NCBI RefSeq assembly: GCF_003667825.1
Contig: NZ_CP033043.1
Coordinates: 5,154,501 to 5,218,500 of the forward strand
Length of the DNA: 64,000 nucleotides
Direction: 5' to 3'
Origin: Metabacillus litoralis
GTDB taxonomy: Bacteria > Bacillota > Bacilli > Bacillales > Bacillaceae
How positions within the stretch are numbered: the first letter of the stretch is position 1; every line of letters begins with the position of its first letter. Below are positions 13,410 through 64,000 of the stretch, piece by piece. The translations under genes were made by a program, and so were the position numbers. Under the pieces are notes generated by a model that did not search any database, was not told the DNA's origin, and saw only the letters and a program-made list of their open reading frames with translations.

Positions 13410-13653
13410 CAATAAGTGATGAGAGGAAACATGAGTAGCAGTTATCTCCCTGTTTGCAGAGAGTCGATGGTTGGTGTGAATCGACACATAGATAACGCGA
13501 ATTACAGTCCTTGAGCTTTTCTTTGTTACAACAATAGCAAAGAACGGACGATCCGTTAATTCGTTGAGTGGAAGAATATTATTATTCTTCAATAAGGGTG
13601 GTACCGCGTGAAATAGTCTAACCACGTCCCTTTTTAGGGATGTGGTTTTTTTG
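13410..13653 (+). promoter_or_regulatory. Tyrosine T-box leader with terminator
   Basis: The untranslated leader of tyrZ shows the parts of a T-box riboswitch. Stem I is closed by GTTATC (about 13441) and GATAAC (13491-13496). The specifier codon is TAC at 13503-13505 (tyrosine) in GCGAATTACAG. The T-box AAGGGTGGTACCGCG is at 13594-13608, whose TGGT pairs with the ACCA end of uncharged tRNA-Tyr. A strong terminator (ACCACGTCCCT with AGGGATGTGGT, then Ts) spans about 13621-13652. Uncharged tRNA would stabilise the antiterminator and switch on tyrZ. Confidence 0.95.
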
Positions 13654-50172: not shown

Positions 50173-50970
50173 ATGAAGCTACAACAAAAAACACAAACAA
50201 TAGTACGTTACCTTAGTGCTGATGAGAAAGTATATTATGGGATTATTGAAGATGGAGAGATCTTACAATTAACCAGTTCATTCACTGAAATAATAAATGA
50301 CGAAATAACATTTGATGGTGTAAGGCTTAACATTGGTGATGTGAAAATTTTAGAGCCAGTTGTACCACAAAAAGTGATTAATTTCGGCTGGACTTATACG
50401 GAACATGCAAAAGAAACTGGGGGACAGGCTAACCTCAAAGAGCCATTTTTGTTCTTAAAGCCTGCTTCTTCCTTAATTCCTAACGGAGGAGATATCATTC
50501 TTCCTTCTACCAAATTAACCAACCAAGTAGAATTGGAAGGCGAAGTGGCTCTAATCATTGGAAAACGTGGAAAAAACATAAAAGAAGAAGAAGCACTGGA
50601 TTATGTTTTCGGCTGTACAATATTTAATGATGTTACCGCAAGAGATCTTACAAAAACAGATCCCCAATTTACACGTGCAAAAGGCTTTGATACTTTTGGT
50701 CCTCTAGGTCCGTGGGTTGTTACAGGTTTAGATCCAACTAATTTGCAAATCGTTACAACATTAAATGATCAAGTTGTTCAAAATGGCAACACAAATCAAA
50801 TGTCCTTTTCCATCCCATTTCTTATTAGCTGGATTTCACAGGTCATGACATTAGAGCCAGGCGATGTTTTAGCTACAGGCTCTCCATCAGGGAGTTGTCC
50901 TATGAAGTCTGGAGATGTGGTGACTGTAGAAGTAGAGAAGATTGGTAAGCTTTGTAATTATGTGAAGTAG
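50173..50970 (+). CDS. Fumarylacetoacetate hydrolase-family protein
   Basis: The 265-residue protein has the FAH fold. NFGWTYTEHAKE, the metal-binding Glu/Glu pair in VELEGEVALIIG, and Asp in IFNDVTARDL define the active site; the final block is ATGSPSGSC (usually GTPAG). These enzymes hydrolyse or decarboxylate diketo acids such as those from aromatic breakdown; the substrate is not clear. It stands alone and is followed by the first 52-bp array. Confidence 0.88.
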   Translation: MKLQQKTQTIVRYLSADEKVYYGIIEDGEILQLTSSFTEIINDEITFDGVRLNIGDVKILEPVVPQKVINFGWTYTEHAKETGGQANLKEPFLFLKPASSLIPNGGDIILPSTKLTNQVELEGEVALIIGKRGKNIKEEEALDYVFGCTIFNDVTARDLTKTDPQFTRAKGFDTFGPLGPWVVTGLDPTNLQIVTTLNDQVVQNGNTNQMSFSIPFLISWISQVMTLEPGDVLATGSPSGSCPMKSGDVVTVEVEKIGKLCNYVK

Positions 50971-51045
50971 ATACACTTCTTATATTCTAACGGAAGTCCA
51001 TCACACTGTGTTCATAGCAGGTTGGTGTGTGAAATAGAGCATCTG

Positions 51046-51927
51046 GGTGCTAGGAGCAAATTTTAGTCTCGATCCAAGTGGAATCGGGATATTACTCGGT
51101 GCTAGGAGCAAAGTTATGTCCGGATATTAGGGGAATCGGGGCATAACTTGGTGGTAGGAGCAAGTTTCTGTCTCGATACAGGGGGTATCGGGACAAATCA
51201 CGGTGTTATGAGCAAATTTATGTCCCAATACAAGGGGAATCGGGACAAACCCCGGTGGTAGGAGCAAGTTTATGTCCCAATACAAGGGGAATCGGGACAA
51301 ACCTTGGTGGTAGGAGCAAGTTTATGTCTCGATACAAGGAGAATCGGGACAAACCCCGGTGTTATGAGGAAGTTTCTGTCTCGATAAAAGAAGAATCGGG
51401 ACAAACCTTGGTGTTATGAGCAAGTTTCTGTCTCGATACAGGGGGAATTGGGACAAATCACGGTGTTATGAGCAAATTTATGTCCCAATACAAGGGGAAT
51501 CGGGACAAACCTTGGTGGTATGAGCAAGTTTATGTCTCGATACAAGGAGAATCGGGACAAACCCCGGTGTTATGAGCAAGCTTCTGTCTCGATACAGGGG
51601 GTATCGGGACAATCCTCGATGGTATGAGCAAATTTATGTCCCAATACAGGGAGAATCGTGACAAACCCCGGTGTAACGAGCAAGTTTCTGTCTCGATACA
51701 GGGGGTATCGGGACAATCCTCGATGGTATGAGCAAATTTATGTCCCAATACAGGGAGAATCGTGACAAACCCCGGTGTAACGAGCAAGTTTCTGTCTCGA
51801 TACAAGCGGAATCGTGACAAACCCCGGTAGTATGAGCAAGCTACTGTCTCGATACAAGAAGAATCGGTACAAACCCCGGTGTTATGAGCAAGATCCTGTC
51901 GATACAAGAAGAATCGGTACAAACCTC
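51046..51927. repeat. 52-bp tandem repeat array 1 (17 units)
   Basis: Unit starts (GGTG) lie at 51046, 51098, 51150 and then every 52 bp without exception to 51878; the last unit is 50 bp after a 2-bp loss in its left arm. Each has a dyad with arms such as TGTCCCGAT (variants TGTCTCGAT, TGTCCCAAT) and ATCGGGACA around 9 bp, and a linker like GGTGTTATGAGCAAGTTTC. Right-hand units from about 51650 have ATCGTGACA or ATCGGTACA arms. The array is not coding: the period is not a multiple of three. It fills the gap after the FAH gene. Confidence 0.95.
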
Positions 51928-52176
51928 GGTGAATTGGATTTAGTATCTGCAGATTGCAACTTTAATTATTTTGACTTATCAGCTGGAGAAAGCAGGAAAA
52001 TCGCTGTTAAAAAAGAAAGTTTAAGTGAACACCTTAGACTTAATTCTTTTAAAGAGCAGTTAACATCAGGAGTGTTTACGACATTGCATCTTATTTTACT
52101 TACAAGCTTAATTAGGACAGACGTCGTAGATATGCTATTGGCTGCCACTTGGGTTAAGCATGTTCGTTTAAAGTGA
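51928..52176 (+). pseudogene. 3' remnant of a gene truncated by array 1
   Basis: From 51928 an open frame of about 82 codons ends in TGA and has normal protein character (NFNYFDLSAGESRKIAVKK, LHLILLTSLIRTDVVDML). There is no start codon or ribosome site of its own, because the upstream frame is array 1. A strong terminator lies 16 bp after the stop, as for a real gene end. The piece resembles the NYFDL-x-GE pattern of the C-terminal domain in family 2 glycosidases, but this is only a guess. Confidence 0.5.
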
Positions 52177-52191
52177 TGAATTAGTTGTAGC

Positions 52192-52240
52192 ACAGCCACA
52201 ATCTCTTGGGAATTAAGAGGTTGTGGCTGTTTTCTGTTTT
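52192..52240 (+). terminator. Terminator after the remnant
   Basis: ACAGCCACAA-CTCTT pairs with AAGAG-TTGTGGCTGT, then TTTTCTGTTTTTTT. Confidence 0.9.
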
Positions 52241-52411
52241 TTTATAGCAAAATGTTATGAAATATTTGCTTCCTAAGACCTAATCCTAATTCCCTAAAAA
52301 CTTACATATCATACTTATTTCCTCTTTTTCTAAAGATAGGAAAATTCCACCCAAAAATACAGTAATATGTAATCATTGTTATTTTGTTACAGGGTGGAAG
52401 GAGAGAGAAAA

Positions 52412-53791
52412 ATGAAGAGGCTTTTGCTGGGTTTAGCGATGTTATCGTTCATGCTGACAGCTTGTTCTTCTGGTGATGGTAGCCAACCGGCACAAACAGA
52501 TGCTGAACCAAAGGAAACAGAACAAAAAAATAACAGCAAAAAAGAAGAAACATATACTCCTAAGGAAGCAAGTTATTATGAAATGGAAGATTTTGATCGA
52601 GAATTAACAGACATAGAAAAGGAAATGTTCCGAAAACCTGGCGTTTTTAGTGGTGAACAATATGATGAAGCGAAAGTGAAGGAAGCGCTGGATCAATTAC
52701 CTGATGATCTCACAGAAGAGCAATATATGGAGGAGCTTTTATATTTATTAGCTGAAGATTATCATGAAGAAATGCAAACAATGCTTACCTTTGATTCAAC
52801 GGTTGATGTTTCAATTGAACGTCCAGACGAAACTGTAGATGCTCCTACTTTAAAAACAGCCCATTACGCTATTTTAGTAGATGCAAGTGGGAGTATGGCA
52901 GCAAAAGTAGGAAGTAAAACGAGAATGGATGCAGCAAAGGAAGCTGTTTTGGAATTTGCTAAGCAAGTACCGGAGAATGCAACGATTTCGTTACGTGTAT
53001 ACGGTCATGAAGGATCAAATAGTGAAGCTGATAAAAAAGCTTCGTGTAGTAGTACTGAAAACGTATATAATGCCAGTTTTGATGAAAATGCCTTTCAACA
53101 AGCACTGAGTCAGGTAAAGCCTGTAGGATGGACACCAATTGCACTTGGGTTGGAATCTGTGAAGTCCGATATTCCTGAGAATACAGATGATGTAGTTGTA
53201 TACGTTGTAAGTGATGGAATTGAAACATGTGGTGGCGATCCAGTACAAGAAGCTAAAAATCTAGTTTCAGCAGATATTCAAACAGTCGTTAATATTATTG
53301 GCTTTGATGTTGATAATGAAGGTCAAACTCTTTTAAAAGAAGTGGCTGCTGCAGGGAATGGTGAGTTTACATATGTTAATTCAGAGCAAGAGCTGAAGAA
53401 ATATATGAGGGCTCAGTATGAACAAATTCAGAAAAAATGGCTTGAGTGGAAAGAAGCTGGCAAAGAGCAGGCTTTCAAACTGAAGGAAGAAAAAAAGAAG
53501 CTAGCTTTTGACACAAAAGAGAGCATGAAAGAAAAAAGCAATCGTGAGAAAGAACGATTGAAGGAAGCGCAAGCTTATTTAAAAGAGAGATTTGAGGATT
53601 ATGACCACCCTGCATCAAAAATGTTTTCAGCGATTGTAGATTATGGAAATAAAAAATGGCGTTATGCTGTGGATACAGGAAATAGGCTATACAGAGAAAG
53701 TGTTGACAGTGGAAATCAGGAGTATCGTGAATACGTGGACGAAGGAAATGAAAAAATTAGGGAAACCATTGATAAGAAGAATGGGAATTAG
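52412..53791 (+). CDS. VWA-domain lipoprotein (YwmC/YwmD-like)
   Basis: ATG 52412 gives 459 residues with a lipoprotein signal ending MLTAC (Cys18). A charged linker is followed by a von Willebrand A domain with an intact metal site, DASGSM from Asp157, and GWTPIALGL and VVSDGIETCGG. The C-terminal 130 residues are a charged coiled coil and then four 11-residue repeats of the form VD-x-GN-x5-R. It is outside the cell on the membrane. The B. subtilis YwmC/YwmD proteins are the nearest recalled relatives but lack the long tail. Confidence 0.85.
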   Translation: MKRLLLGLAMLSFMLTACSSGDGSQPAQTDAEPKETEQKNNSKKEETYTPKEASYYEMEDFDRELTDIEKEMFRKPGVFSGEQYDEAKVKEALDQLPDDLTEEQYMEELLYLLAEDYHEEMQTMLTFDSTVDVSIERPDETVDAPTLKTAHYAILVDASGSMAAKVGSKTRMDAAKEAVLEFAKQVPENATISLRVYGHEGSNSEADKKASCSSTENVYNASFDENAFQQALSQVKPVGWTPIALGLESVKSDIPENTDDVVVYVVSDGIETCGGDPVQEAKNLVSADIQTVVNIIGFDVDNEGQTLLKEVAAAGNGEFTYVNSEQELKKYMRAQYEQIQKKWLEWKEAGKEQAFKLKEEKKKLAFDTKESMKEKSNREKERLKEAQAYLKERFEDYDHPASKMFSAIVDYGNKKWRYAVDTGNRLYRESVDSGNQEYREYVDEGNEKIRETIDKKNGN

Positions 53792-53831
53792 TAGTTTTGT
53801 TTATTCTTAGCATATGTTCACTATAAGAATC

Positions 53832-53870
53832 AAAGGGTTGCTTTCATTTTTGAAGGCAACTCTTTTGTTT
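53832..53870 (+). terminator. Terminator of the VWA gene
   Basis: AAAGGGTTGC-TTTC pairs with GAAG-GCAACTCTTT allowing wobbles, followed by T-rich sequence. Confidence 0.75.
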
Positions 53871-53956
53871 TCATTTTTTTTCAGAGTTTACGAATGATTG
53901 AATTACTGGTCGCAATAAGCTACACTACTGATTGAATATCTGAGCGAGGTGCAACC

Positions 53957-55882
53957 ATGAACGTGAACGATCGACAAAAGGAATTACTAAGAACGCTTTT
54001 AGTACAAAATGGACAAACCTTAAATATAGTAGATTTGACAGGTCAATTAGGATGTTCGGAAAAAACGGTTCGTAATGACTTGAGTATAATTGAAGATCTT
54101 CTAGCTGAATACCCTGATACTTATTTAAAACGGCAACCAGGGATTGGAATTACCCTTGAAGCGGAAGAAAGCGAGATGTCTGAGATTTTTCAAAAGCTGC
54201 TATCAACTGAACCGAAATCTCAGGAAGATCGTTTTATCGAAATGGCCTATCATTTATTAGTAAGTAATAAAGCGATAACATTGCAAGAGCTATCTAAGAA
54301 GTATTTTGTTCCAAAAGTAACCATAAAAAAAGAATTAGATACCATTGCGGATTGGCTTACAAACTATCAATTAGAGCTTATCTCTAAACCAAGGTTAGGT
54401 AATATTGTTCAAGGGTCTGAACTGCAAAAACGTAGTGCTTTGGCGCATTTATCACAGCTTCTTTCTTCTTTATCAGATAATAAAAATTACGTTCTTGAGC
54501 TTTTTTTACCTTATGAAATAGCAACCGTAAAAAAAGCACTAAACGAATTGCAGCAGAAATATTCCATTGCCTTTACCGATGCTGCGATGGAAAGTTTACT
54601 TGTTCATGCCCTAATAATGATGAAAAGAACAAGGCAAAAATCGCCAGTAACTGTTCCTGATAAGGAAAAGCAGGCTGTATATTCTTATAAAGAATACAAA
54701 TATGCGTTATCCTTTTTTGAACAATTAGAAGATGTTTTTGCAGTTAAATTTCCTGAAGACGAGCGAATCTATTTTACATGGCATTTAATTAGTGGAAAAA
54801 GGAAAAATGACATCATAGAGGATCCGTTTATAAAAAGTGAATACTTATTAAATATCATTTCTGACTTAACAACAAAGCTTAGTAGTATTACTTTATTTCC
54901 ATTTGAAAAGGATGAAATTTTAAAAAGTGGGTTAATTGTACATGTACATTCGGTTATTAACCGAATTAAGTACGGGTTTCCTATTACTAATCCCCTTTTA
55001 CCGAATATCAAAAAAATGTATCCTTATTTATTTAATATGGTGTTACTAGCTTTGAATGAAATTAAAGAAACTTATGAATTGGAAGTTCCTGAGGATGAGG
55101 CAGCTTACTTGGTTCTTCATTTTCAAGCTTCAATCGAGCGATTAAAAGAAAGTCGAGAGAAGCAACGAAGAACATTAATTGTTTGTCATATGGGTGTTGG
55201 GATGTCTCATTTATTGCAGGCTAAGATTGAGCAACATTACCAGGATATACAAGTATCCGCTTGCATTGGAAAAGCGGAATTACGTGATTATTTGCAGAAT
55301 AATGAAGTTGATTTTATCATTTCTACAGTAGAGTTAGAAAAGGTAGGGATTCCTTATATCACGATTTCACCTTTATTGGAAGCAAAGGATAAGGACAAGC
55401 TAAATACTTTTTTAACTGAAATGGAAAATCACCAGCAAGCGGGAAGTAAAGAAAAAGTTCTAACACAATTAGTTAGAGGTGATTTAGTTCATTTACATGT
55501 GGATAAGGAACATCCTTTTCAAGTAATTGAAATGCTAGGAAATGTACTATATGAGAAAGGTTTCGTTCGTAAAGATTTTATTCATAGTGCGCTCCTAAGA
55601 GAAAGAAAATCTTCAACCTCCATTGGTGGATCTATAGCTATTCCACATGGTAGTCCAACAATGGTTAATAGATCGGCTATAGCCATTGCTCTGTTAAAGG
55701 AGCCTTTAGATTGGGGTAATGAACAAGTTTCCATCGTGTTCATGCTAGCCATTACAACTGGGGATCCAAAACTAAATCGCCATGCTGTTGGACAAATTGT
55801 AGGTTATAGTGAAACTCCGTCGTTTATCCAATCATTAAAAGAATCAAAGAATGTAAAAGAGTTCTTGGAGAAGTTAAAATAA
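53957..55882 (+). CDS. manR: PTS-controlled mannose regulator ManR
   Basis: The 641-residue protein has DeoR/Mga-type HTH (LGCSEKTVRNDLSIIEDLL), two PRD domains (about residues 190-390), an EIIB-Gat-like domain (LIVCHMGVGMSHLL with phospho-Cys) and a C-terminal EIIA-like domain (SIAIPHGSPT with phospho-His). Phosphorylation by the PTS sets activity. It activates the adjacent manP-manA operon, as in B. subtilis. It is divergent from nothing and followed by a strong hairpin. Confidence 0.92.
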   Translation: MNVNDRQKELLRTLLVQNGQTLNIVDLTGQLGCSEKTVRNDLSIIEDLLAEYPDTYLKRQPGIGITLEAEESEMSEIFQKLLSTEPKSQEDRFIEMAYHLLVSNKAITLQELSKKYFVPKVTIKKELDTIADWLTNYQLELISKPRLGNIVQGSELQKRSALAHLSQLLSSLSDNKNYVLELFLPYEIATVKKALNELQQKYSIAFTDAAMESLLVHALIMMKRTRQKSPVTVPDKEKQAVYSYKEYKYALSFFEQLEDVFAVKFPEDERIYFTWHLISGKRKNDIIEDPFIKSEYLLNIISDLTTKLSSITLFPFEKDEILKSGLIVHVHSVINRIKYGFPITNPLLPNIKKMYPYLFNMVLLALNEIKETYELEVPEDEAAYLVLHFQASIERLKESREKQRRTLIVCHMGVGMSHLLQAKIEQHYQDIQVSACIGKAELRDYLQNNEVDFIISTVELEKVGIPYITISPLLEAKDKDKLNTFLTEMENHQQAGSKEKVLTQLVRGDLVHLHVDKEHPFQVIEMLGNVLYEKGFVRKDFIHSALLRERKSSTSIGGSIAIPHGSPTMVNRSAIAIALLKEPLDWGNEQVSIVFMLAITTGDPKLNRHAVGQIVGYSETPSFIQSLKESKNVKEFLEKLK

Positions 55883-55898
55883 ACAACTTTCTTTAATA

Positions 55899-55932
55899 AA
55901 CTTCCGGTAATAATTTATTTTTACCGGAAGTT
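55899..55932 (+). terminator. 12-bp inverted repeat between manR and manP
   Basis: AACTTCCGGTAA (55899-55910) and TTACCGGAAGTT (55921-55932) pair perfectly around a 10-nt loop. No T run follows, so it might equally be an operator. A second dyad AATTCA-TGAC-TGAATT lies at 55951-55966, before a -10-like TACAAT. Confidence 0.55.
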
Positions 55933-56020
55933 GTGGTAAAAACAAAAATCAATTCATGACTGAATTCCCATTACAATGAATGTAAGCAATTACAAATAAC
56001 ATTCTTAGGAGGAAAGGTCC

Positions 56021-57931
56021 ATGAAGATCTTAGCTGTCACAGCATGCCCGGTCGGTATTGCTCATACATATATGGCTGCTGAAAATCTACAAAAAGCTGG
56101 CGAAGAATTAGGTGTTGATATAAAGGTTGAAACACAAGGATCAATTGGTGTTGAAAATGCCTTAACAGATCAAGATATTGCAGAAGCAGACGGAATTATT
56201 ATTGCTGCTGATAAAGAGGTATCAAAGGATCGCTTTGTTGGTAAGAAAGTAATCGTTACAGGCGTACAAGATGGTATTCGTAAGCCAAAAGAACTGATTG
56301 AAAAAATTCAAAGTGGTGATGTGCCATTATACAGACCAGACTTGAAATCAGTAGATGAAGTTAAGCAAAAAAGTAAACAAAAAGAAAATCCAATCTATAA
56401 GCATTTAATGAACGGTGTATCGTACATGGTGCCATTCATCGTTGTAGGGGGATTATTAATTGCATTGGCTTTAACTCTTGGTGGTGAACAAACTCCAGGT
56501 GGAATTGTGATTCCTGAAGATTCCATTTGGAAGCAAATTGAAACACTTGGTGCAACATCATTTATGTTCATGATCCCAATATTAGCTGGTTTTATCGCTG
56601 TCAGTATAGCTGACCGCCCAGGTTTAGTACCAGGTATGATTGGTGGGTATATTGCAGCGAATGGAAGTTTTTATGGAAGTGAAGCTGGTGCTGGTTTTAT
56701 TGGAGGCATCATCGCAGGTTTCTTAGCAGGTTATATTGCACTCGCTATTAAGAAAATCAAGGTTCCGAAAGCGGTACAGCCAGTTATGCCGATTATATTT
56801 ATCCCGATTATTTCATCTGTTATCGTTGGACTTTTATTTATTTTCGTAATCGGTGCCCCAGTGGCGCAAATCTTTGAAGGCTTAACATCAATGCTTGCTG
56901 GTATGCAAGGAGCTAGCTCTATTTTATTAGCTGTTATCCTTGGTGCGATGATTGCAGTTGATATGGGTGGACCTTTTAACAAAGTAGCATTCTTATTCGG
57001 CTCTGCCATGATTGCTGAAGGAAACTATGAAATTATGGGACCAATTGCAGTAGCGATTTGTATTCCACCAATCGGTATGGGTCTTGCAACATTAATCAAT
57101 AAGAAAAAATATCTTCCTAATGAAAGGGAAGCTGGTAAAGCATCATTTACAATGGGTCTTTTTGGAATTACAGAAGGTGCAATTCCGTTTGCAGCGCAAG
57201 ATCCACTTCGTGTTATTCCTAGTATTGTTGCAGGTTCAGTTGTTGGATCTGTTATCGCAATGATTGGGAATGTAGGTGATAAAGTAGCACACGGTGGTCC
57301 TATCGTTGCGGTTTTAGGAGCAGTGGATCATGTTGTGATGTTCTTTATCGCAGCCATTGTAGGTGTTCTTGTTACGGCATTTATGGTTAACTTTTTGAAA
57401 AAAGATGTCGAAAGTGCAACTAGTAGCAACGGAAAAGTAGAACGTGCTCCCGAAGAAGCTGAGGAACTAGAAATTAACAAACTAGTAGATATTACAAGTG
57501 CAGATTTGATTCATATCAATCTCGCTGGAACAACTCGTAATGATGTTATTGATGAATTAATTGAAACATTCGATTCACAAGGAATCTTAGATTCTAAGGA
57601 AGCTTTTAAACAGGCAATTCTAAATCGTGAAGCTCAAAGCTCAACTGGTCTTGGCATGAATATTGCGATTCCACATGGTAAGTCAAAGGCGGTAAAACGA
57701 CCTGCTGTTGCTTTTGGAATCAAGCGTGAGGGTGTTGATTGGAGCAGCCTTGACGGTACGGATGCGAAACTTATTTTTATGATAGCTGTACCTGAAGAAA
57801 ATGCTGGAGATGCGCATCTAAAAATTTTACAAATGCTTTCTCGTAAGTTAATGGATGAAGAGTTTAGAAATCAACTATTAAAAGTAGCTTCTAAGAACGA
57901 AGCAATGGCTGTATTAGAGGAAATCAAATAA
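56021..57931 (+). CDS. manP: Mannose/fructose PTS permease EIIBCA (ManP)
   Basis: The 636-residue transporter has an EIIB domain with the phospho-Cys motif TACPVGIAHTYMAA at the N-terminus, an EIIC channel of about ten helices (residues 125-470; FGITEGAIPFAA is the fructose-class motif) and a C-terminal EIIA with phospho-His in NIAIPHGKS. It imports and phosphorylates mannose. The order manR-manP-manA equals the B. subtilis mannose operon. AGGAGG lies 7 nt upstream of the ATG. Confidence 0.93.
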   Translation: MKILAVTACPVGIAHTYMAAENLQKAGEELGVDIKVETQGSIGVENALTDQDIAEADGIIIAADKEVSKDRFVGKKVIVTGVQDGIRKPKELIEKIQSGDVPLYRPDLKSVDEVKQKSKQKENPIYKHLMNGVSYMVPFIVVGGLLIALALTLGGEQTPGGIVIPEDSIWKQIETLGATSFMFMIPILAGFIAVSIADRPGLVPGMIGGYIAANGSFYGSEAGAGFIGGIIAGFLAGYIALAIKKIKVPKAVQPVMPIIFIPIISSVIVGLLFIFVIGAPVAQIFEGLTSMLAGMQGASSILLAVILGAMIAVDMGGPFNKVAFLFGSAMIAEGNYEIMGPIAVAICIPPIGMGLATLINKKKYLPNEREAGKASFTMGLFGITEGAIPFAAQDPLRVIPSIVAGSVVGSVIAMIGNVGDKVAHGGPIVAVLGAVDHVVMFFIAAIVGVLVTAFMVNFLKKDVESATSSNGKVERAPEEAEELEINKLVDITSADLIHINLAGTTRNDVIDELIETFDSQGILDSKEAFKQAILNREAQSSTGLGMNIAIPHGKSKAVKRPAVAFGIKREGVDWSSLDGTDAKLIFMIAVPEENAGDAHLKILQMLSRKLMDEEFRNQLLKVASKNEAMAVLEEIK

Positions 57932-57958
57932 AGTAGAATACCATATTGGAGGTAGTGT

Positions 57959-58915
57959 ATGTATAAAGAGCCAATATTTTTAGAGCCTGTTTTTCAAGAA
58001 AGAATTTGGGGTGGCCAAAAGCTGCAAACTGAATTTGGGTATAGAATTCCCAATGAAAAAACTGGGGAAGCTTGGGTAATCTCTGCACATCCAAATGGTC
58101 CAAGTGTTATCAAGAATGGACCTTTAGCAGGAAAAACATTAGAGGAAGCTTGGAAAGAACACGGAGAGCTATTTAATAAAAATGCATCTAATAATGAAGA
58201 ATATCCTTTGCTTGTTAAAATTTTAGATGCGAATGCAGATTTATCTGTTCAAGTTCATCCAGATGATCATTATGCACGAGAAGTAGAAGGTGTTCCTTAT
58301 GGAAAAACAGAGTGCTGGTATGTTCTCAGTGCAGAGGAAGGTGCCGAGCTTGTTTTAGGACACCATGCAAAAACTAAAGATGAACTTGAGAAAATGCTTC
58401 AAAATCAAGAATGGGAATCATTTTTACGTCGTAAAAAAGTAAAAGCGGGTGACTTTGTTTATGTTCCAAGTGGCACCATTCATGCAATCGGTAAAGGAAT
58501 TGTCATTTTAGAAACACAGCAAAGCTCCGATATTACTTATCGTGTCTATGATTATGACCGTAAGGATGCTAATGGTCAAAAGCGTGACCTACATTTAGAT
58601 CGTTCAATAGATGTAACAACTGTGCCACACCAGGATGTAGAAACCGAACAAAGTGAGAGAATAGTAGGTGGTCTTACTGAGAAAAAATTAGTTGAAGCTG
58701 AATATTTCACTGTCTATCATTGGCAGTTAAGTGGTGATGCTTCATTGACACTCCAGCATGATTTCTTACAGGTTAGTGTAACGGCAGGAAAAGGCACAAT
58801 TACAGTAGATGATCATGTTTTCCTAATTGAAAAAGGAACACATTTTGTTCTTCCACATGGAGTTGGTGAATACCAGCTGTCGGGTGAAGCGGAGTTTGTT
58901 GTATCACATGTTTAA
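57959..58915 (+). CDS. manA: Mannose-6-phosphate isomerase (type I)
   Basis: The 318-residue enzyme converts mannose-6-phosphate to fructose-6-phosphate. Zinc ligands lie in LSVQVHPDD and GKTECWYVL, with a further His in PSGTIHAIGKG, and the family block ETQQSSDITYRVYDYDR is complete. It starts 27 bp after manP behind TTGGAGGT and ends the operon with a terminator. Confidence 0.95.
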   Translation: MYKEPIFLEPVFQERIWGGQKLQTEFGYRIPNEKTGEAWVISAHPNGPSVIKNGPLAGKTLEEAWKEHGELFNKNASNNEEYPLLVKILDANADLSVQVHPDDHYAREVEGVPYGKTECWYVLSAEEGAELVLGHHAKTKDELEKMLQNQEWESFLRRKKVKAGDFVYVPSGTIHAIGKGIVILETQQSSDITYRVYDYDRKDANGQKRDLHLDRSIDVTTVPHQDVETEQSERIVGGLTEKKLVEAEYFTVYHWQLSGDASLTLQHDFLQVSVTAGKGTITVDDHVFLIEKGTHFVLPHGVGEYQLSGEAEFVVSHV

Positions 58916-58921
58916 TATGAG

Positions 58922-58954
58922 AAAAGCCAAATCATTTTGATTTGGCTTTTCTTA
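58922..58954 (+). terminator. Terminator of manA
   Basis: AAAAGCCAAATCA and its complement pair around TTT-type loop, with TTCTTATT after. Confidence 0.88.
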
Positions 58955-58987
58955 TTAAAAGACACCGCGGTTTCAACTATCTTCCTT

Positions 58988-59381
58988 GGAGATGGTCTTC
59001 ACTGGCGGAATGAAGACCACAGTTGCAGTAAATTTAGTCGGAAATGGTCTTCATGGGAGTAATGAAGACCAACGTGGGAGAAATTTTGCTCGGAAATGGT
59101 CATCATGAGAGTAATGAAGACCAACGTGGCAGAAATTTTGCTTGGAAATGGTCATCATGAGAGTAATGAAGACCAACGTGGCAATAATTTTGCTTGGAAA
59201 TGGTCATCATAGGAGTAATGAAGACCATCACAGCAGAAATTTTGCTTGGAAATGGTCATCATGAGATTAATGAAGACCATTACGGCAGAAATTTTGCTTG
59301 AAAATGGTCATCATGAGATTAATGAAGACCAACGTGTCAGAAATTTAGTCGGAGATGGTCATGGAAGTGGCCTTCATGACC
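58988..59381. repeat. 52-bp tandem repeat array 2 (7 units plus a partial)
   Basis: Starts at 58988, 59040, 59092, 59144, 59196, 59248, 59300 (each 52 bp) and a partial unit at 59351. Each has the dyad GGTCTTCAT or GGTCATCAT, seven bases, then ATGAAGACC, and a linker like AACGTGGCAGAAATTTTGC. The partial unit has lost the standard arms but has its own dyad GGTCATG/CATGACC. The sequence is unrelated to arrays 1 and 3 except in period and layout. It lies between the convergent manA and SDR genes. Confidence 0.95.
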
Positions 59382-59464
59382 TGCAATAAATTTGTTAACC
59401 CAATAATATGTAAAGGATCTATTTCCATTTAGAAATAGATCCTTTTTCGTTTAACTTCCTATTT

Positions 59465-60181
59465 TTAAGGATTTGTTGACCATAATCCAGCGCCCTTAAG
59501 AACGACTCTTGGATTAAGCTTTAATCCAGCTACCAGTAGTTCTGCCAGATCTTCAGGCTGCATTACATTCTCTGGATTTCCACTTATTAAATTTGTTTCT
59601 ACTGCTAAGTCTGTTGCAACAGTACTTGGTGTTAAAGCTGTTACACGAATGTTTTTCTTTCTAACTTCAAGCATGAGTGATTCTGTTAACCCCAACACAG
59701 CAAATTTAGATGCACTGTATGCACTTGTTACAGGAGCTCCTTTTTGGCCAGCTGTTGAAGAAATATTAACAATATCTCCGGAGTTTTTCTCAAGCATATC
59801 AGGTAACACAGCTCTTGTTACATTATAAACACCCATTAAATTAACTCGAATAATGTTTTCCCACTCTTCAGGAGATAAGTCAAGGAAGCCACCAAATTTA
59901 GCAATACCAGCATTATTAACGAGTATATCAATAGAACCTAGTTCCGATTTGATATGCTCTACAGCATGAGTAACTGCTTCAAGGTCAGATACATCAGCTG
60001 TTGCAGCAGAAATTGTAATATCGTATTGTTCTAATTCAGAAGTTAGTTTTTCAAGATTTGACATGGTTAATCCGATTAAACCAAGGTTAACTCCTTCTTT
60101 TGCTAAAGCAATGGCAGTTGCTCGTCCAATTCCTCTACCTGCTCCTGTAATTACAGCATTTTTTCCTTTTAATGAAGTCAT
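59465..60181 (-). CDS. Short-chain dehydrogenase/reductase (FabG-like)
   Basis: The 238-residue protein has the SDR fold: GAGRGIG for NAD(P) binding, NNAG, the catalytic Ser in NISSTAGQ and YSASK with Tyr and Lys. Such proteins are annotated as 3-ketoacyl-(acyl carrier protein) reductases, but the substrate is not established. It lies downstream of hxlAB on the same strand, separated by 77 bp. Confidence 0.88.
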
Positions 60182-60258
60182 ATCATCATTCCTTATACAA
60201 ATTTTTATGTAGTCATACTGAAGACCGCAAGTAAAAGATTGCGGTCTTCACATACCTA

Positions 60259-60816
60259 TTATTCAAGATTGGCATGTTTGCCATACATCTTATTTGTATC
60301 ATACCCCTTTTTCTCCATGAACCTCAAGATAATAGCATCATAGAAAAGTAACAAAGTTTGTTCAAAAAGGGATCCCATAGGTTGAATCGTTTGATAATCG
60401 CCTTCAGATTGGTCTTTCGGCGATCCAGGCATTTTTATTGTAAAATTAGCTAATTGTCCAATTGTAGATTCTGGGAATATCGTAACAGCAGCAATTTTAC
60501 CGCCTATGTTGTGGGCCTTTTCAGCCATCGAAACTAAGCTTTTCGTTTCTCCTGAGCCAGACCCGATGATTAAAATATCATCTTTTTCAAAATTAGGTGT
60601 GGTGGTTTCACCGAGAACATATGCATCAATTCCCATATGCATCATCCGCATAGCAAAGGATTTTCCCATGAATCCTGACCTACCAGCACCTGCGACAAAA
60701 ACCTTCTTGGCTTCTAAAATCCCATTAACCAATTTTTCAGCATCTTCATCTAAAATAAGGCTTGAAGATTGCTGAAGTTCATTTAGAATTTTAGTTAGAT
60801 ATTGAGTCGTTTGCAT
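60259..60816 (-). CDS. hxlB: 6-phospho-3-hexuloisomerase HxlB
   Basis: The 185-residue SIS-domain enzyme isomerises D-arabino-3-hexulose-6-phosphate to fructose-6-phosphate. FVAGAGRSGFMGKSFAMRMMHMG, IGSGSGETKSL and MPGSPKDQS match the family closely. It follows hxlA with a 7-bp gap and completes the RuMP formaldehyde-fixing pair. Confidence 0.95.
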   Translation of the reverse strand: MQTTQYLTKILNELQQSSSLILDEDAEKLVNGILEAKKVFVAGAGRSGFMGKSFAMRMMHMGIDAYVLGETTTPNFEKDDILIIGSGSGETKSLVSMAEKAHNIGGKIAAVTIFPESTIGQLANFTIKMPGSPKDQSEGDYQTIQPMGSLFEQTLLLFYDAIILRFMEKKGYDTNKMYGKHANLE

Positions 60817-60823
60817 TCCTGCG

Positions 60824-61468
60824 TTACCCTACTGATACATTTTCTTTAATCATTTGTTGCATTTTTGCCGCTGCAGCCTTTTTATCTTCTTGACCAGTAA
60901 TTCCGCCACCAACAATAACAAGATCTGGTTGTACGTTAATTACTTCAGCAAGAGTATCTAATTTAATTCCGCCTGCGATAGCAGTTTTTGCGTTCTTTAC
61001 AACACTTTTAATTGTTTGAAGATCTTCAAATGAATTTTTACCAACTGCTTGAAGGTCATAACCTGTGTGTACACAAATATAGTCAACACCTAAAGCGTCT
61101 ACTTCCTTTGCACGGCCAGCAAGATCTTTTACAGCAATCATGTCAACAAGAATCTTTTTCCCTTGCTTTTTCGCTTCTTCAACCGCACCTTTAATTGACA
61201 TATCTTCAGCTGCGCCAAGAATTGTTACAATATCTGCTCCTGCTTCAGAAGCTTTCATCACTTCATAACCAGCTGCATCCATAATTTTAAGGTCAGCTAG
61301 AACCTTTAAGTTAGGGTATGCTGCTTTAACTTCCTTCACAGCACGAAGGCCCTCATTGATCACAACTGGTGTTCCAATTTCAACGATATCAATATGATCC
61401 TCAACTTCTTTTATCAATTCAATTGCTTCTGGGATATTGACTAAATCAAGTGCTAATTGTAATTCCAT
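60824..61468 (-). CDS. hxlA: 3-hexulose-6-phosphate synthase HxlA
   Basis: The enzyme joins formaldehyde to ribulose-5-phosphate. The product is an (alpha/beta)8 barrel of 214 residues from ATG 61468, which has GAGGAG about 8 nt upstream; GTG 61477 is too near that site. MELQLALDL, EIGTPVVINEGL, LADLKIMDAAGYEVMKA and AIAGGIKLDTL agree with B. subtilis HxlA. It detoxifies formaldehyde. Confidence 0.95.
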   Translation of the reverse strand: MELQLALDLVNIPEAIELIKEVEDHIDIVEIGTPVVINEGLRAVKEVKAAYPNLKVLADLKIMDAAGYEVMKASEAGADIVTILGAAEDMSIKGAVEEAKKQGKKILVDMIAVKDLAGRAKEVDALGVDYICVHTGYDLQAVGKNSFEDLQTIKSVVKNAKTAIAGGIKLDTLAEVINVQPDLVIVGGGITGQEDKKAAAAKMQQMIKENVSVG

Positions 61469-61593
61469 ATTTGTCACTCCTCATTTGAATTATAACGAAC
61501 CGCACTAATGATTCTAAAGAAGATAATGTAGTCCTATCCAAGTTTTCATCAATAGCGGTACTCTATTAGTCTAATAGGTATTAATTTTTTTAT

Positions 61594-61647
61594 GAAGTAC
61601 GCACTTTTTTCTTACATAGTGACAAAAAGTATACTATGTGCTATTCT
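61594..61647. promoter_or_regulatory. hxlA-hxlR intergenic control region
   Basis: A promoter for hxlR fits as GTGACA (61619-61624), 17 bp, TATTCT (61642-61647). An inverted repeat ACATAGT-N12-ACTATGT (61614-61639) overlaps it, and AGTACGCAC (about 61597) and AGTATACTA recur as near-direct repeats. B. subtilis HxlR binds two repeats in this position to activate hxlAB; the exact boxes here are inferred. Confidence 0.5.
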
Positions 61648-61670
61648 ATGTAAAAATTGGAGGTGGTTAA

Positions 61671-62033
61671 GTGTCACGTATGAATGATAAGACGTTTAAC
61701 TGTGAAAAAGAATTAACCCTCTCGGTTATCGGTGGTAAATGGAAAATGCTTATTTTATGGCATTTAGGCAAAGAGGGTACAAAGCGTTTTGGTGAGCTAA
61801 AAGCACTTATGCCGGGCATTACTCAAAGAATGCTTGTTAATCAATTACGCGAGTTAGAAGAAGACCTTATTGTAGAGAGAAAAGTGTATCCTGTTGTGCC
61901 TCCGAAGGTTGAATATTCATTGACGAAACAAGGAGAAACACTAATGCCGATCCTCGATTCTATGTACGAATGGGGAAAGAACTATATGAATAATGTTATT
62001 GATCCTGAAGATAAAAATGTATCGGTAAAATAA
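61671..62033 (+). CDS. hxlR: Formaldehyde-responsive activator HxlR
   Basis: The 120-residue winged-helix protein is the founding type of the HxlR family. [20 protein letters not shown], the conserved Cys (residue about 10, formaldehyde sensing) and [14 protein letters not shown] match B. subtilis HxlR nearly exactly. The GTG start follows GGAGGTGG. It is divergent from hxlAB and should activate them. Confidence 0.95.
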
Positions 62034-62038
62034 TAATA

Positions 62039-62077
62039 TAAACCCCAAGTGATAGGAGACTACTACTCGGGGTTTTT
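62039..62077 (+). terminator. Terminator of hxlR
   Basis: AAACCCC and GGGGTTT form the stem base, with partial pairing inside, followed by TTTTT. Confidence 0.75.
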
Positions 62078-62184
62078 ACGTGAGAAAAGAAATTCAGCTT
62101 TTAGGAAGGAATCTAGGTCGGCTTTGTTTAAATTAAAGGAGGATAAATGCACTTAGATCGAATAAAACAGTAAGGGAGGATAAT

Positions 62185-63087
62185 ATGACACACATCATTA
62201 ACCGTTCACAACCAATTTACGCTTTTAGTAAAGAGCATTCTCCAATTTCGAATATCAATTCTGGAGAAACAGTGATCATTGAAACCTATGATTGCTTTGA
62301 AAACCAAATCACCTCAGCTGATTCTACATATGAAAGCCTAGACTGGAGTAAGGTCAATCCTGCAACAGGTCCTGTTTATGTGGAAGGGGCAGAAGTGGGA
62401 GATATTCTTGAAGTGACAATTGATGATATAAAATTAGAAGATCAAGGTGTGATGGCCGTTAGTCCAGGAATGGGCGTTTTAGGTGAAAAGATCACTAATT
62501 TTGAAGCAAAACTTATTCCAATTGAAAACGGAAAAGCTATCTTTAATGAAAACATTCACATTCCATTAAATCCAATGATTGGTGTAATTGGAGTCGCTCC
62601 ACAAGGTGAACCAATCTCTTGCGGCACACCAGGCTCTCACGGTGGAAATATGGATAATAAAATGATTACAAAAGGAACAACGCTATATTTTCCAGTGTTT
62701 CAACAAGGTGCGCTCTTTGCATTAGGGGATCTTCATGCTGCAATGGGGGATGGAGAGATTTGTGTAACTGGTATTGAGATAGCTGGACAGGTTACTGTCA
62801 CTTTAAAGGTGATAAAAGGAAAATCACTATACAATCCAGTTTTAGAAACAGATGAATTTATCGGTACAATTGTATCAGCAAAAACACTAGATGAAGCCGT
62901 TAAATTGTCCGTAGAAGATATGGTTGAATTACTTCAGGATAAACTAAACTTACCACTTAGTGAATTAACGATGCTATTAAGTGCTGTGGGACAAACTGAA
63001 ATTTGTCAGGTTGTTGATCCACTAGTGACAACGAGATTCTTAGTTCCAAAATGGGTTCTGGAAAAGAACAAAGTCTCCTTATTCTAA
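62185..63087 (+). CDS. Acetamidase/formamidase-family protein
   Basis: The 300-residue protein belongs to the FmdA/AmdA family, which hydrolyses short amides to acid and ammonia. VGDILEVTI, GTPGSHGGNMDNK, and GDLHAAMGDGEICVTGIE, with metal-binding His and Glu, are typical. GGGAGGA precedes ATG 62185. It lies after hxlR; formamide hydrolysis would be linked to one-carbon metabolism, but the neighbourhood is only suggestive. Confidence 0.9.
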   Translation: MTHIINRSQPIYAFSKEHSPISNINSGETVIIETYDCFENQITSADSTYESLDWSKVNPATGPVYVEGAEVGDILEVTIDDIKLEDQGVMAVSPGMGVLGEKITNFEAKLIPIENGKAIFNENIHIPLNPMIGVIGVAPQGEPISCGTPGSHGGNMDNKMITKGTTLYFPVFQQGALFALGDLHAAMGDGEICVTGIEIAGQVTVTLKVIKGKSLYNPVLETDEFIGTIVSAKTLDEAVKLSVEDMVELLQDKLNLPLSELTMLLSAVGQTEICQVVDPLVTTRFLVPKWVLEKNKVSLF

Positions 63088-63296
63088 TAAGGGGGGTGTT
63101 GTTCTTTTTTTGGTTTCAGGTACAACCTGTGATTCCATTTATGAATTTATGAAAGATGTTATAAGTTGAAGATGTTTACTAAGGTGAGTGTGTTTTATTG
63201 GAAAAGTAGTTGCTTTTGTTAGTTTTAATTTTGGAACAAGAGCATTGGAAAACATGTTGTTCCCTGGAATGGAAATAGCTAATACGTCTTAGTTCA

Positions 63297-64000
63297 GAAT
63301 CGAGACAAGATGAGGAAGAGAATGGGGTTCTTGTCTCGATACCTGGAGAATCGGGACACACCCGAGGAAGCAAAGCGAGAATGAGTCCCGATACCCGTGG
63401 AATCGGGACACACCCGAGGAAGCAAAGCGAGAATGAGTCCCGATACTCGGAGAATCGGGACACACCCGAGGAAGCAAAGCGAGAATGAGTCCCAATACTC
63501 GGAGAATCGGGACACACCCGAGGAAGCAAAGCGAGAATGAGTCCCAATACCCGTAGAATCGGGACACACCCGAGGAAGCAAAGCGAGAATGAGTCCCGAT
63601 ACTCGGAGAATCGGGACACACCAGAGGAAGAAAAACGAGAATGAGTCCCGATACCCGTGGAATCGGGACACATCAGAGGAAGCAAAGCGAGAATGAGTCC
63701 CGATACCCGAGGAATCAGGACACACCCGAGGAAGCAAAGCGAGAATGAGTCCCGATACCCGTGGAATCGGGACACACCAGAGGAAGCAAAGCGAGAATGA
63801 GTCCCGATACCCGTGGAATCGGGACACACCCGAGGAAGCAAAGCGAGAATGAGTCCCGATACTCGTAGAATCGGGACACACCCGAGGAAGAAAAACGAGA
63901 ATGAGTCCCGATACCCGAGGAATCAGGACACACCCGAGGAAGCAAAGCGAGAATGAGTCCCGATACCCGAGGAATCAGGACACACCCGAGGAAGCAAAGC
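63297..64000. repeat. 52-bp tandem repeat array 3 (13 dyads, runs off the window)
   Basis: Dyads begin at 63333, 63385, 63437 and so on every 52 bp to 63957; a degenerate right arm at 63297 opens the array. Each has GTCCCGAT (or GTCTCGAT, GTCCCAAT) and ATCGGGAC arms and a linker like CCGAGGAAGCAAAGCGAGAATG. Homogeneity is higher than in array 1: several units differ by only one to five bases. It begins 210 bp after the acetamidase gene, and the stretch between holds nothing I recognise. Open frames seen on the minus strand are artefacts of repeats. Confidence 0.95.

What the first reader, a model, noticed from the sequence alone, without database searches (positions are those of the whole stretch)
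51046..64000. Three arrays, one 52-bp geometry
All three arrays repeat at 52 bp, and each unit consists of one dyad (8-9-bp arms around a 7-9-bp centre) plus a linker of about 25 bp. Fifty-two bases is five turns of B-DNA at 10.4 bp, so all dyads would face one side. Array 2 has a different sequence from 1 and 3, so the period and layout are conserved without sequence identity. That suggests selection or a copying mechanism that fixes geometry, such as a protein lattice, transcript hairpin array or chromosome-organising element.
Basis: partly seen in the sequence, partly recalled or inferred. Interest (0 to 1): 0.9.

Follow-up and report, generated by a model that had tools for sequence, protein, structure and literature searches.

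The report
Fixed-length 52-bp repeat arrays in Bacillaceae
Many Bacillus-like bacteria carry stretches of repeated DNA whose letters differ from place to place but whose repeat length is almost always exactly 52 bases; this oddity was already published without an explanation, and the pattern seen here suggests that the exact length, five turns of the DNA helix, is what matters.

Summary
In detail: three 52-bp arrays (51046-51931, 58985-59362, 63333 to about 64229). The chromosome (Metabacillus) holds hundreds more units in three dyad families, A, B and C; in 20 evenly spaced 20-kb stretches five of the six arrays with at least 5 copies have period 52, one has 21. But the phenomenon is published: Subirana & Messeguer (2021, PMC8161180) describe constant-size 52-nt repeats of variable sequence in Bacillus, and their B. 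litoralis families contain my dyads C and A. So: already known, function open. I add: each unit is a 10-7-10 dyad plus 25-bp linker; arms covary; in genome G282 spacing stays 52 though neighbouring loops differ like random ones; indels are about 15-fold depleted inside arrays; linkers are purine-rich on the leading strand and carry A-tracts about one turn apart (predicted curvature); no array lies between divergent genes (0 of 34); a REP transposase is not required (9 of 51 array genomes lack a hit). Best reading: a helically phased, curved double-stranded DNA lattice for an unidentified symmetric protein. Protein and function are inferred, not shown.

The parts
51046..51931 (+). Array 1: 17 units of 52 bp, dyad family A (GTCYCGATA-N7-AATCGGGAC) with linker AAACCTCGGTGTTATGAGCAAGTTTAT (consensus); between a + strand FAA-hydrolase gene and a + strand VWA gene
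58985..59362 (+). Array 2: 7.3 units of 52 bp, dyad family B (GGTCWTCAT-N7-ATGAAGACC) with linker AACGTGGCAGAAATTTTGCTTGGAAAT; between convergent genes (mannose-6-phosphate isomerase +, short-chain dehydrogenase -)
63333..64000 (+). Array 3: family A dyads with a linker unlike that of array 1 (ACACCCGAGGAAGCAAAGCGAGAATGA); 12.8 units in the window, 17.2 in all, ending at window coordinate about 64229; downstream of an acetamidase/formamidase gene
50173..50970 (+). FAA hydrolase family gene, upstream neighbour of array 1
   Evidence: Pfam PF01557
57959..58915 (+). Mannose-6-phosphate isomerase gene, left neighbour of array 2
   Evidence: Pfam PF20511 and PF21621
59465..60181 (-). Short-chain dehydrogenase gene, right (convergent) neighbour of array 2
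   Evidence: Pfam PF00106
62185..63087 (+). Acetamidase/formamidase family gene, upstream neighbour of array 3
   Evidence: Pfam PF03069

Best explanation
The arrays are double-stranded DNA platforms. Every five helical turns they present one dyad (10-bp arms, 7-bp centre) on the same face of the helix, joined by a 25-bp purine-rich linker whose A-tracts lie roughly one turn apart and so bend the axis in one direction. I think an unidentified two-fold symmetric DNA-binding protein sits on the dyads and polymerises along or is wrapped by the curved array, making a compact nucleoprotein body in the space after gene 3' ends and between convergent genes, as a nucleoid-organising or insulating element. 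SHOWN by computation: the geometry and its constancy over differing sequences and many genera, the covarying arms, the depletion of indels, the replication polarity of the linker, the gene-end location, and local change in copy number. INFERRED: that the constraint is selection on helical phase, that a protein binds, and that the role is nucleoid organisation (also proposed in PMC8161180).
For: Spacing is exactly 52 for 2943 of 3095 core pairs (37-67 allowed) in 36 genomes. In G282 neighbours with loops as different as random ones keep 52 in 33 of 35 spacings of 51-53. Inside own-genome arrays 1739 substitutions go with 17 units of other length, while intergenic flanks of the same loci show 263 substitutions and 38 indel events against G002/G007. 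4 of 7 B-C junctions are at exactly 52, the others at 103, 104 and 154. Arm positions 6-10 form Watson-Crick pairs in 50, 52, 50, 63 and 49 of 78 loci, each above the maximum of 1000 shuffles, and fall within shuffle range from position 11. A-rich stretches at the start, middle and end of the linker recur in 80 Bacillales loci and in families A, B, C of this genus (the third is weak in A). Predicted compaction is higher than with dinucleotide-shuffled linkers (80 loci p 3e-5; 44 arrays p 0.013) and peaks at unit length 52-53. Linker purine on the leading strand averages 0.68 against 0.52 in 331 non-array intergenic regions; 13 of 13 convergent-gene arrays agree. Layout is 13 convergent, 21 co-directional, 0 divergent.
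Against: No binding protein was identified, and no experiment was done. One genome carries at least three arm sequences, so one sequence-specific protein would need relaxed specificity or paralogues. Off-register spacings are not clearly helix-phased (22 spacings, Rayleigh p 0.06 at 10.4 bp, 0.02 at 10.2); junctions of family A with B or C are at 40, 64, 94 and 126. One genome uses mostly 51 bp and one array in G014 mixes 51 and 52. The wedge parameters were recalled, and a repeat of any bent sequence peaks near 52-53 in that model. Within the genus the arrays are patchy: none in 18 stretches of other congeners or in 10 evenly spaced stretches of G002. Covariation also fits RNA hairpins or quasi-palindrome correction. 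A published RNA-seq analysis reports transcription (PMC8625621, passages).
Confidence: 0.45

Rival explanations
1. The arrays work as transcripts: tandem RNA hairpins in 3' untranslated regions or small RNAs that protect mRNA ends or soak up an RNA-binding protein.
For: Arms covary. Two units of each window array fold better than shuffles (z -4.3, -2.8, -2.9). Arrays lie at gene 3' ends. In co-directional contexts pairs that wobble on the transcribed strand outnumber the reverse 147 to 37. Repeats of B. coagulans are reported as transcribed in PMC8625621 (passages).
Against: RNA hairpins do not explain a constant linker length between neighbours that are not recent duplicates. By array the wobble bias is only 11 to 7. 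Purine polarity follows replication in 13 of 13 convergent arrays. No Rfam match lies in the arrays.
Confidence: 0.25
2. The arrays are REP-like mobile or selfish palindromes spread by a single-strand (Y1/RAYT) transposase acting on the lagging-strand template; the fixed unit length is set by the copying enzyme.
For: Gene 3'-end location, replication polarity, and an association with RAYT genes (41 of 50 array genomes tested against 185 of 347 others, p 1e-4; 42 of 51 after a correction). The own genome has one RAYT.
Against: 9 of 51 array genomes have no RAYT hit at E 1e-10, including three with 69-103 tandem pairs. Units are head-to-tail, whereas REP dimers are mostly inverted (PMC3733652, passages). 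No array dyad was found in the 3.3-kb locus of the own RAYT. Orthologous loci differ by copy number, as in local amplification. The association may be phylogenetic.
Confidence: 0.15
3. The arrays are neutral satellites: local slippage and unequal recombination homogenise them, quasi-palindrome correction keeps the arms complementary, and 52 is an old accident frozen by homogenisation.
For: Copy number varies between orthologous arrays, one array of 8 units corresponds to a partial single unit in G002, and loops and linkers are homogeneous within an array. Linkers within a family keep weak similarity.
Against: Indels are about 15-fold depleted relative to substitutions. 52 is kept in G282 without homogenisation and over 25 of 136 genera sampled. 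Array linkers are far more strand-biased than other intergenic DNA.
Confidence: 0.12

Closest known systems
Constant-size 52-nt tandem repeats of Bacillus (Subirana & Messeguer 2021, PMC8161180; and J. Bacteriol. 2020, which I could not read)
   Same: Same phenomenon: constant 52-nt repeats, several families per genome with different sequence, short signals often present with their reverse in one repeat, 51/53 occasional, patchy species distribution, partial conservation between strains. By eye, their B. litoralis families 42_52_9 and 77_52_5 contain my dyads C and A.
   Different: A word search of that paper's main text finds no palindrome, hairpin, curvature, leading strand or A-tract. The 10-7-10+25 anatomy, covariation, replication polarity, gene-end layout, indel depletion and non-homogenised neighbours are additions here; I cannot say whether the 2020 paper has any of them.
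20-21-nt constant-size tandem repeats of the same papers
   Same: Generally non-coding, two helical turns long; a repeat of this kind occurs in this genome (TTATCTTCGATT, periods 21/41/62).
   Different: Shorter unit; no relation to the 52-bp dyads was tested.
REP/BIME elements and RAYT transposases (PMC3733652, passages)
   Same: Short palindromes, many copies, several families per genome, mostly outside genes.
   Different: Head-to-tail at fixed 52 bp instead of mostly inverted dimers; no fixed GTAG/CGTC tag seen; RAYT not required.
Nucleosome-length satellites of eukaryotes (recalled comparison)
   Same: Repeat length set by a DNA-packaging geometry while sequence turns over.
   Different: Bacterial, 52 bp, packaging protein unknown.

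Membership tests
Subirana-Messeguer 52-nt Bacillus tandem repeats | Repeat size 52 (51-53) nt, at least four repeats | tested here: met
Subirana-Messeguer 52-nt Bacillus tandem repeats | Several families of the same length and different sequence in one genome | tested here: met
   Families A, B, C
Subirana-Messeguer 52-nt Bacillus tandem repeats | Non-coding, unit not a multiple of three | tested here: met
   52 is not a multiple of 3; three array ORFs scanned gave no Pfam match above its cut-off
Subirana-Messeguer 52-nt Bacillus tandem repeats | Sequence match to published families of B. litoralis | tested here: met
   By eye: Table 1 consensus of 42_52_9 contains dyad C and 77_52_5 contains dyad A; no match for B was seen in the two listed families
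REP/RAYT system | GTAG or CGTC tetranucleotide tag beside the palindrome | tested here: inconclusive
   No fixed tag is seen in the array consensus list; no formal test was made
REP/RAYT system | Dedicated RAYT gene in the genome, flanked by the elements | tested here: not met
   RAYT present in G000 but no array dyad found in its 3.3-kb locus; 9 of 51 array genomes without RAYT hit
CRISPR array | Identical repeats separated by unrelated spacers | tested here: not met
   Linkers repeat within each array
Known structured RNA (Rfam 15) | Match to a covariance model at gathering score | tested here: not met
   Window: only a T-box elsewhere; at E up to 1 four matches in 50900-64000, none inside an array
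Nucleoid protein lattice | A protein that binds the dyads and spreads | not testable with these tools
   needs pull-down or ChIP

The most novel reading that the evidence does not exclude
The 52-bp arrays are a bacterial analogue of packaging-length satellites: curved, helically phased dyad lattices, oriented by the direction of replication, whose length is fixed by an unknown architectural protein that reads two-fold symmetry and spacing rather than sequence.
Probability: 0.35. Interest if true: 0.85.

Novelty: already known. Interest (0 to 1): 0.5.

Why it matters
A repeat length held across many genera (25 of the 136 sampled carry the TTCAT-core form) without sequence conservation has been an open puzzle since the 2020-2021 reports. 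The anatomy found here turns it into a testable statement: change the unit by half a helical turn, or swap arms symmetrically, and see whether binding, DNA shape or function is lost. If a protein is responsible, it would be an unknown chromosome-organising factor in a large group of bacteria that B. subtilis, reported to lack 52-nt repeats (PMC8161180), cannot reveal.

Tried and rejected
Rfam: no array match. RAYT as necessary agent: associated, not required; the TGTCCCGATAG next to the RAYT palindrome lies in the gene's 3' coding end. Phages and plasmids as carriers: the core tandem pattern occurs in 3 stretches of the viral collection (not followed up), and array 3 has no match in plasmids. 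CsrA-like GGA loops: dropped by eye, since loops differ between arrays. Helical phase of off-register spacings: 22 spacings, p 0.06 at 10.4 bp, 0.02 at 10.2, 0.15 at 10.5, inconclusive. Extended-loop dyads in G282 with 40-42 extra bp at four loci: striking but few, and common descent is not excluded. RNA-type wobble bias: 147 to 37 by cell but 11 to 7 by array along genes, and 214 to 112 by cell but 18 to 15 by array along the leading strand, weak.

Corrections and limits. One search used a terminus boundary of 1.31 Mb, one search used 1.30 Mb; the array at 1,302,512 disagrees under the stricter boundary, so the count is 35 of 38 or 34 of 38 arrays with more than half purine on the leading strand. 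The automatic layout count caught only 19 arrays (7 convergent, 12 co-directional, 0 divergent); 13/21/0 comes from the list (34 of 38 arrays with both neighbours known), tested against the background. Genes were called by a crude ORF rule (at least 90 aa). One search was given 38 of those 51 genomes (mostly those with more pairs). The 44 arrays are 40 of G000 and 4 of relatives (L072, L089, L090, L091); the same 4 are among the 48 arrays and the A-frequency lines. In G282 some of the 35 spacings belong to larger duplicated segments (L319, L320, L321) and one locus (L323) is a homogeneous array; 6 further spacings under 160 bp are 104, 105 and 144-146. Of 20 requested stretches of other congeners 18 were delivered, and none held a 52-bp array; of 10 random stretches each, G002 had none and G014 one. 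One search was cut and gives no count. The 80 loci were chosen by a 52-bp pattern, so outside the genus only searches test spacing without that bias, and only for dyads with the TTCAT or CTTCAT core; one search lists places for two of its ten genomes only. Within-array counts treat copies as separate although they descend from each other. Dyad detection allowed at most 3 mismatches, which flatters arm conservation.
Full report
OBSERVATION. Tandem Repeats Finder reports three 52-bp arrays in the window and no other array of more than 3.1 copies. Arrays 1 and 3 carry dyad A, GTCYCGAT(A)-N7-(A)ATCGGGAC; array 2 carries dyad B, GGTCWTCAT-N7-ATGAAGACC. Array 3 runs on to about window coordinate 64229. 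The window lies at 5,154,501-5,218,500 of a one-contig genome of 5,230,624 bp. The genus is Metabacillus by a contig-length match: G005:C1 and NZ_KV917371.1 (M. halosaccharovorans) both have 2,975,153 bases; agreement with published B. (now Metabacillus) litoralis families suggests that species or a near one.

GENOME-WIDE PICTURE. Dyad A matches 309 places on the forward strand (1 mismatch allowed, control 1), dyad B 132 (2 mismatches, control 0). A third family C, GTCGTTCAT-N7-ATGAACGAC, was found without a pattern in 20 evenly spaced 20-kb stretches and matches 135 places exactly (control 0). In those 20 stretches TRF finds six arrays of at least 5 copies: five with period 52 (L059, two in L069, two in L071) and one with period 21 (L065); a 144-bp repeat of 4.7 copies is in L052. 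In 49 own-genome stretches 431 of 464 successive dyad spacings under 330 bp are exactly 52, 10 are 51, 5 are 53. These stretches were partly chosen by dyad matches, but not by spacing.

SEQUENCE VERSUS GEOMETRY. Each array has its own loop and linker; arms are shared. Within-family linker identity averages 0.43, 0.39 and 0.48 for A, B and C (shuffled 0.30, 0.30, 0.32), and 2 of 373 pairs reach 0.70 (4 of these 48 arrays are from relatives). B and C units occur in one array: of 7 B-C junctions four are at 52, the others at 103, 104 and 154; the four junctions with A are at 40, 64, 94 and 126. Orthologous loci in held stretches of G002 and G007 could be compared for 17 arrays: 15 have dyads of the array families there, usually with another copy number and often with changed linkers; one array of 8 units corresponds to a partial single unit, and one to a longer interval without detected dyads. 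Divergence from the array consensus is 2.9% in arms, 13.4% in loops and 10.0% in linkers; 1739 substitutions in 417 units accompany 17 non-52 units, against 263 substitutions and 38 indel events in 3148 columns of intergenic flank in 24 segments.

BEYOND THIS GENOME. Of the 21 genomes of the genus, dyad A (exact) is in 3, C in 4, B in 6, the own genome included. Eighteen 20-kb stretches (one shorter) of other congeners held no 52-bp array; ten of G002 held none and ten of G014 one. In 397 genomes of the order it occurs in 51 (25 of 136 genera), control 0. With spacing free from 37 to 67, in 38 of these 51 genomes, 2981 of 3209 pairs are exactly 52; without G054 and G383 it is 2943 of 3095. G054 uses mostly 51. 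A search with free loop length (4-12) in ten genomes gave 14-377 matches against 0-10 for controls; the listed array members of G068 have loop 7. In G282, short runs of 2-6 dyads have neighbouring loops as different as random ones (0.34 against 0.29), yet 33 of 35 spacings of 51-53 are 52. There the arm pair at position 8 covaries inside dyads: G-C 23, T-A 15, G-A 12, T-C 1, T-T 1 (p 6e-5 without the last).

DYAD AND LINKER ANATOMY. Over 78 loci, arm positions 6-10 (not fixed by the search) pair in 50, 52, 50, 63 and 49 cases, each above the maximum of 1000 shuffles (47, 48, 42, 56, 42); positions 11-15 give 26, 25, 27, 37 and 31, inside the shuffle range, position 15 close to its top of 32. 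This supports 10-bp arms, though the loci are not phylogenetically independent. Linkers, oriented by purine content, show A-rich stretches at their start, middle and end; the third is weak in family A. A wedge model with recalled parameters predicts more compaction than base-shuffled and dinucleotide-shuffled linkers (56 of 80 loci and 28 of 44 arrays above their median), with a maximum at unit length 52-53; that maximum is partly a property of any repeated bend.

POLARITY AND POSITION. dnaA lies at 4,164,176 and GC skew changes sign near there and near 1.3 Mb. Linker purine on the leading strand averages 0.68 over 38 arrays against 0.52 in 331 non-array intergenic regions; 35 of 38 exceed 0.5 (34 with the stricter terminus boundary), including 13 of 13 between convergent genes, where transcription gives no direction. 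In 80 loci of other Bacillales the purine-rich strand agrees with local GC skew in 62 (p 4e-7), where gene direction is a possible confounder. Of 34 arrays with both neighbours known, 13 lie between convergent, 21 between co-directional and 0 between divergent genes; background 65/346/99 (p 0.0003 for convergent, 0.0019 for divergent).

MECHANISM. A fixed length over differing sequence, in-register family changes, depletion of indels and a predicted intrinsic bend point to double-stranded DNA geometry, hence to a protein lattice or wrap; the symmetric arms suggest a dimer. The RNA rival explains covariation and gene-end position but not the linker length; wobbles favour the transcribed strand 147 to 37 by cell but only 11 to 7 by array. 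A RAYT agent is associated (41 of 50 tested, p 1e-4; 42 of 51 after correction) but missing from 9.

PRIOR WORK. Eight literature searches missed it; one search found PMC8161180. I read its Introduction, part of the Methods, the first of two parts of the Results, the Discussion and the tables, and passages besides. It reports 1886 tandem repeats of 51-53 nt among 4029 in 176 Bacillus genomes, several families per genome, species-specific short signals often with their reverse, and proposes a nucleoid protein or small RNAs. Its B. litoralis families contain my C and A dyads. PMC8625621 (passages) reports transcription in B. coagulans. The 2020 J. Bacteriol. paper is not held, so I cannot say that the features I add are absent from it. 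The finding is therefore already known; the explanation is still open.

Noticed in passing
L065 2567-2704, L130 19672-19767, L134 14738-14893, L141 9458-9555, L155 4181-4282 (own genome); L164 14793-14918 (G007); L103 1007-1185, 5508-5749, 9955-10154 (G015): A second repeat kind with core TTATCTTCGATT (AATCGCGGATAG in G015) and periods 21, 41-42 and 62-63, close to 2, 4 and 6 helical turns; probably the 20-21-nt class of PMC8161180.
   Followed up: no
L319, L320, L321, L328 (G282): Intervals of 144-146 bp between dyads contain a dyad whose loop is 47-49 nt instead of 7, that is 40-42 extra bp, close to four helical turns.
   Followed up: partly
L311 1081-1923 (G000:3,734,584-3,735,423): A RAYT-like gene (NCBIfam NF047646 below its cut-off, E 1.5e-16) with GGGACA/TGTCCC palindromes at its ends, which share TGTCCC with dyad A.
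   Followed up: partly
window 51814-52176: A 120-aa open frame begins inside array 1 and continues about 80 codons beyond it; only a sub-cut-off Pfam match. It may be a gene remnant or chance.
   Followed up: no
window 13410-13634: T-box leader, 135 bits.
   Followed up: no
G054 (for example C15:149627-150051): A genome in which most core arrays have period 51 instead of 52, often with T5 after the right arm.
   Followed up: partly
L191 2176-2376 (Heyndrickxia acidiproducens): A 52-bp array with another dyad, TGTCTAATTA-N7-CAATTAGACA, just before a TTCAT array.
   Followed up: no
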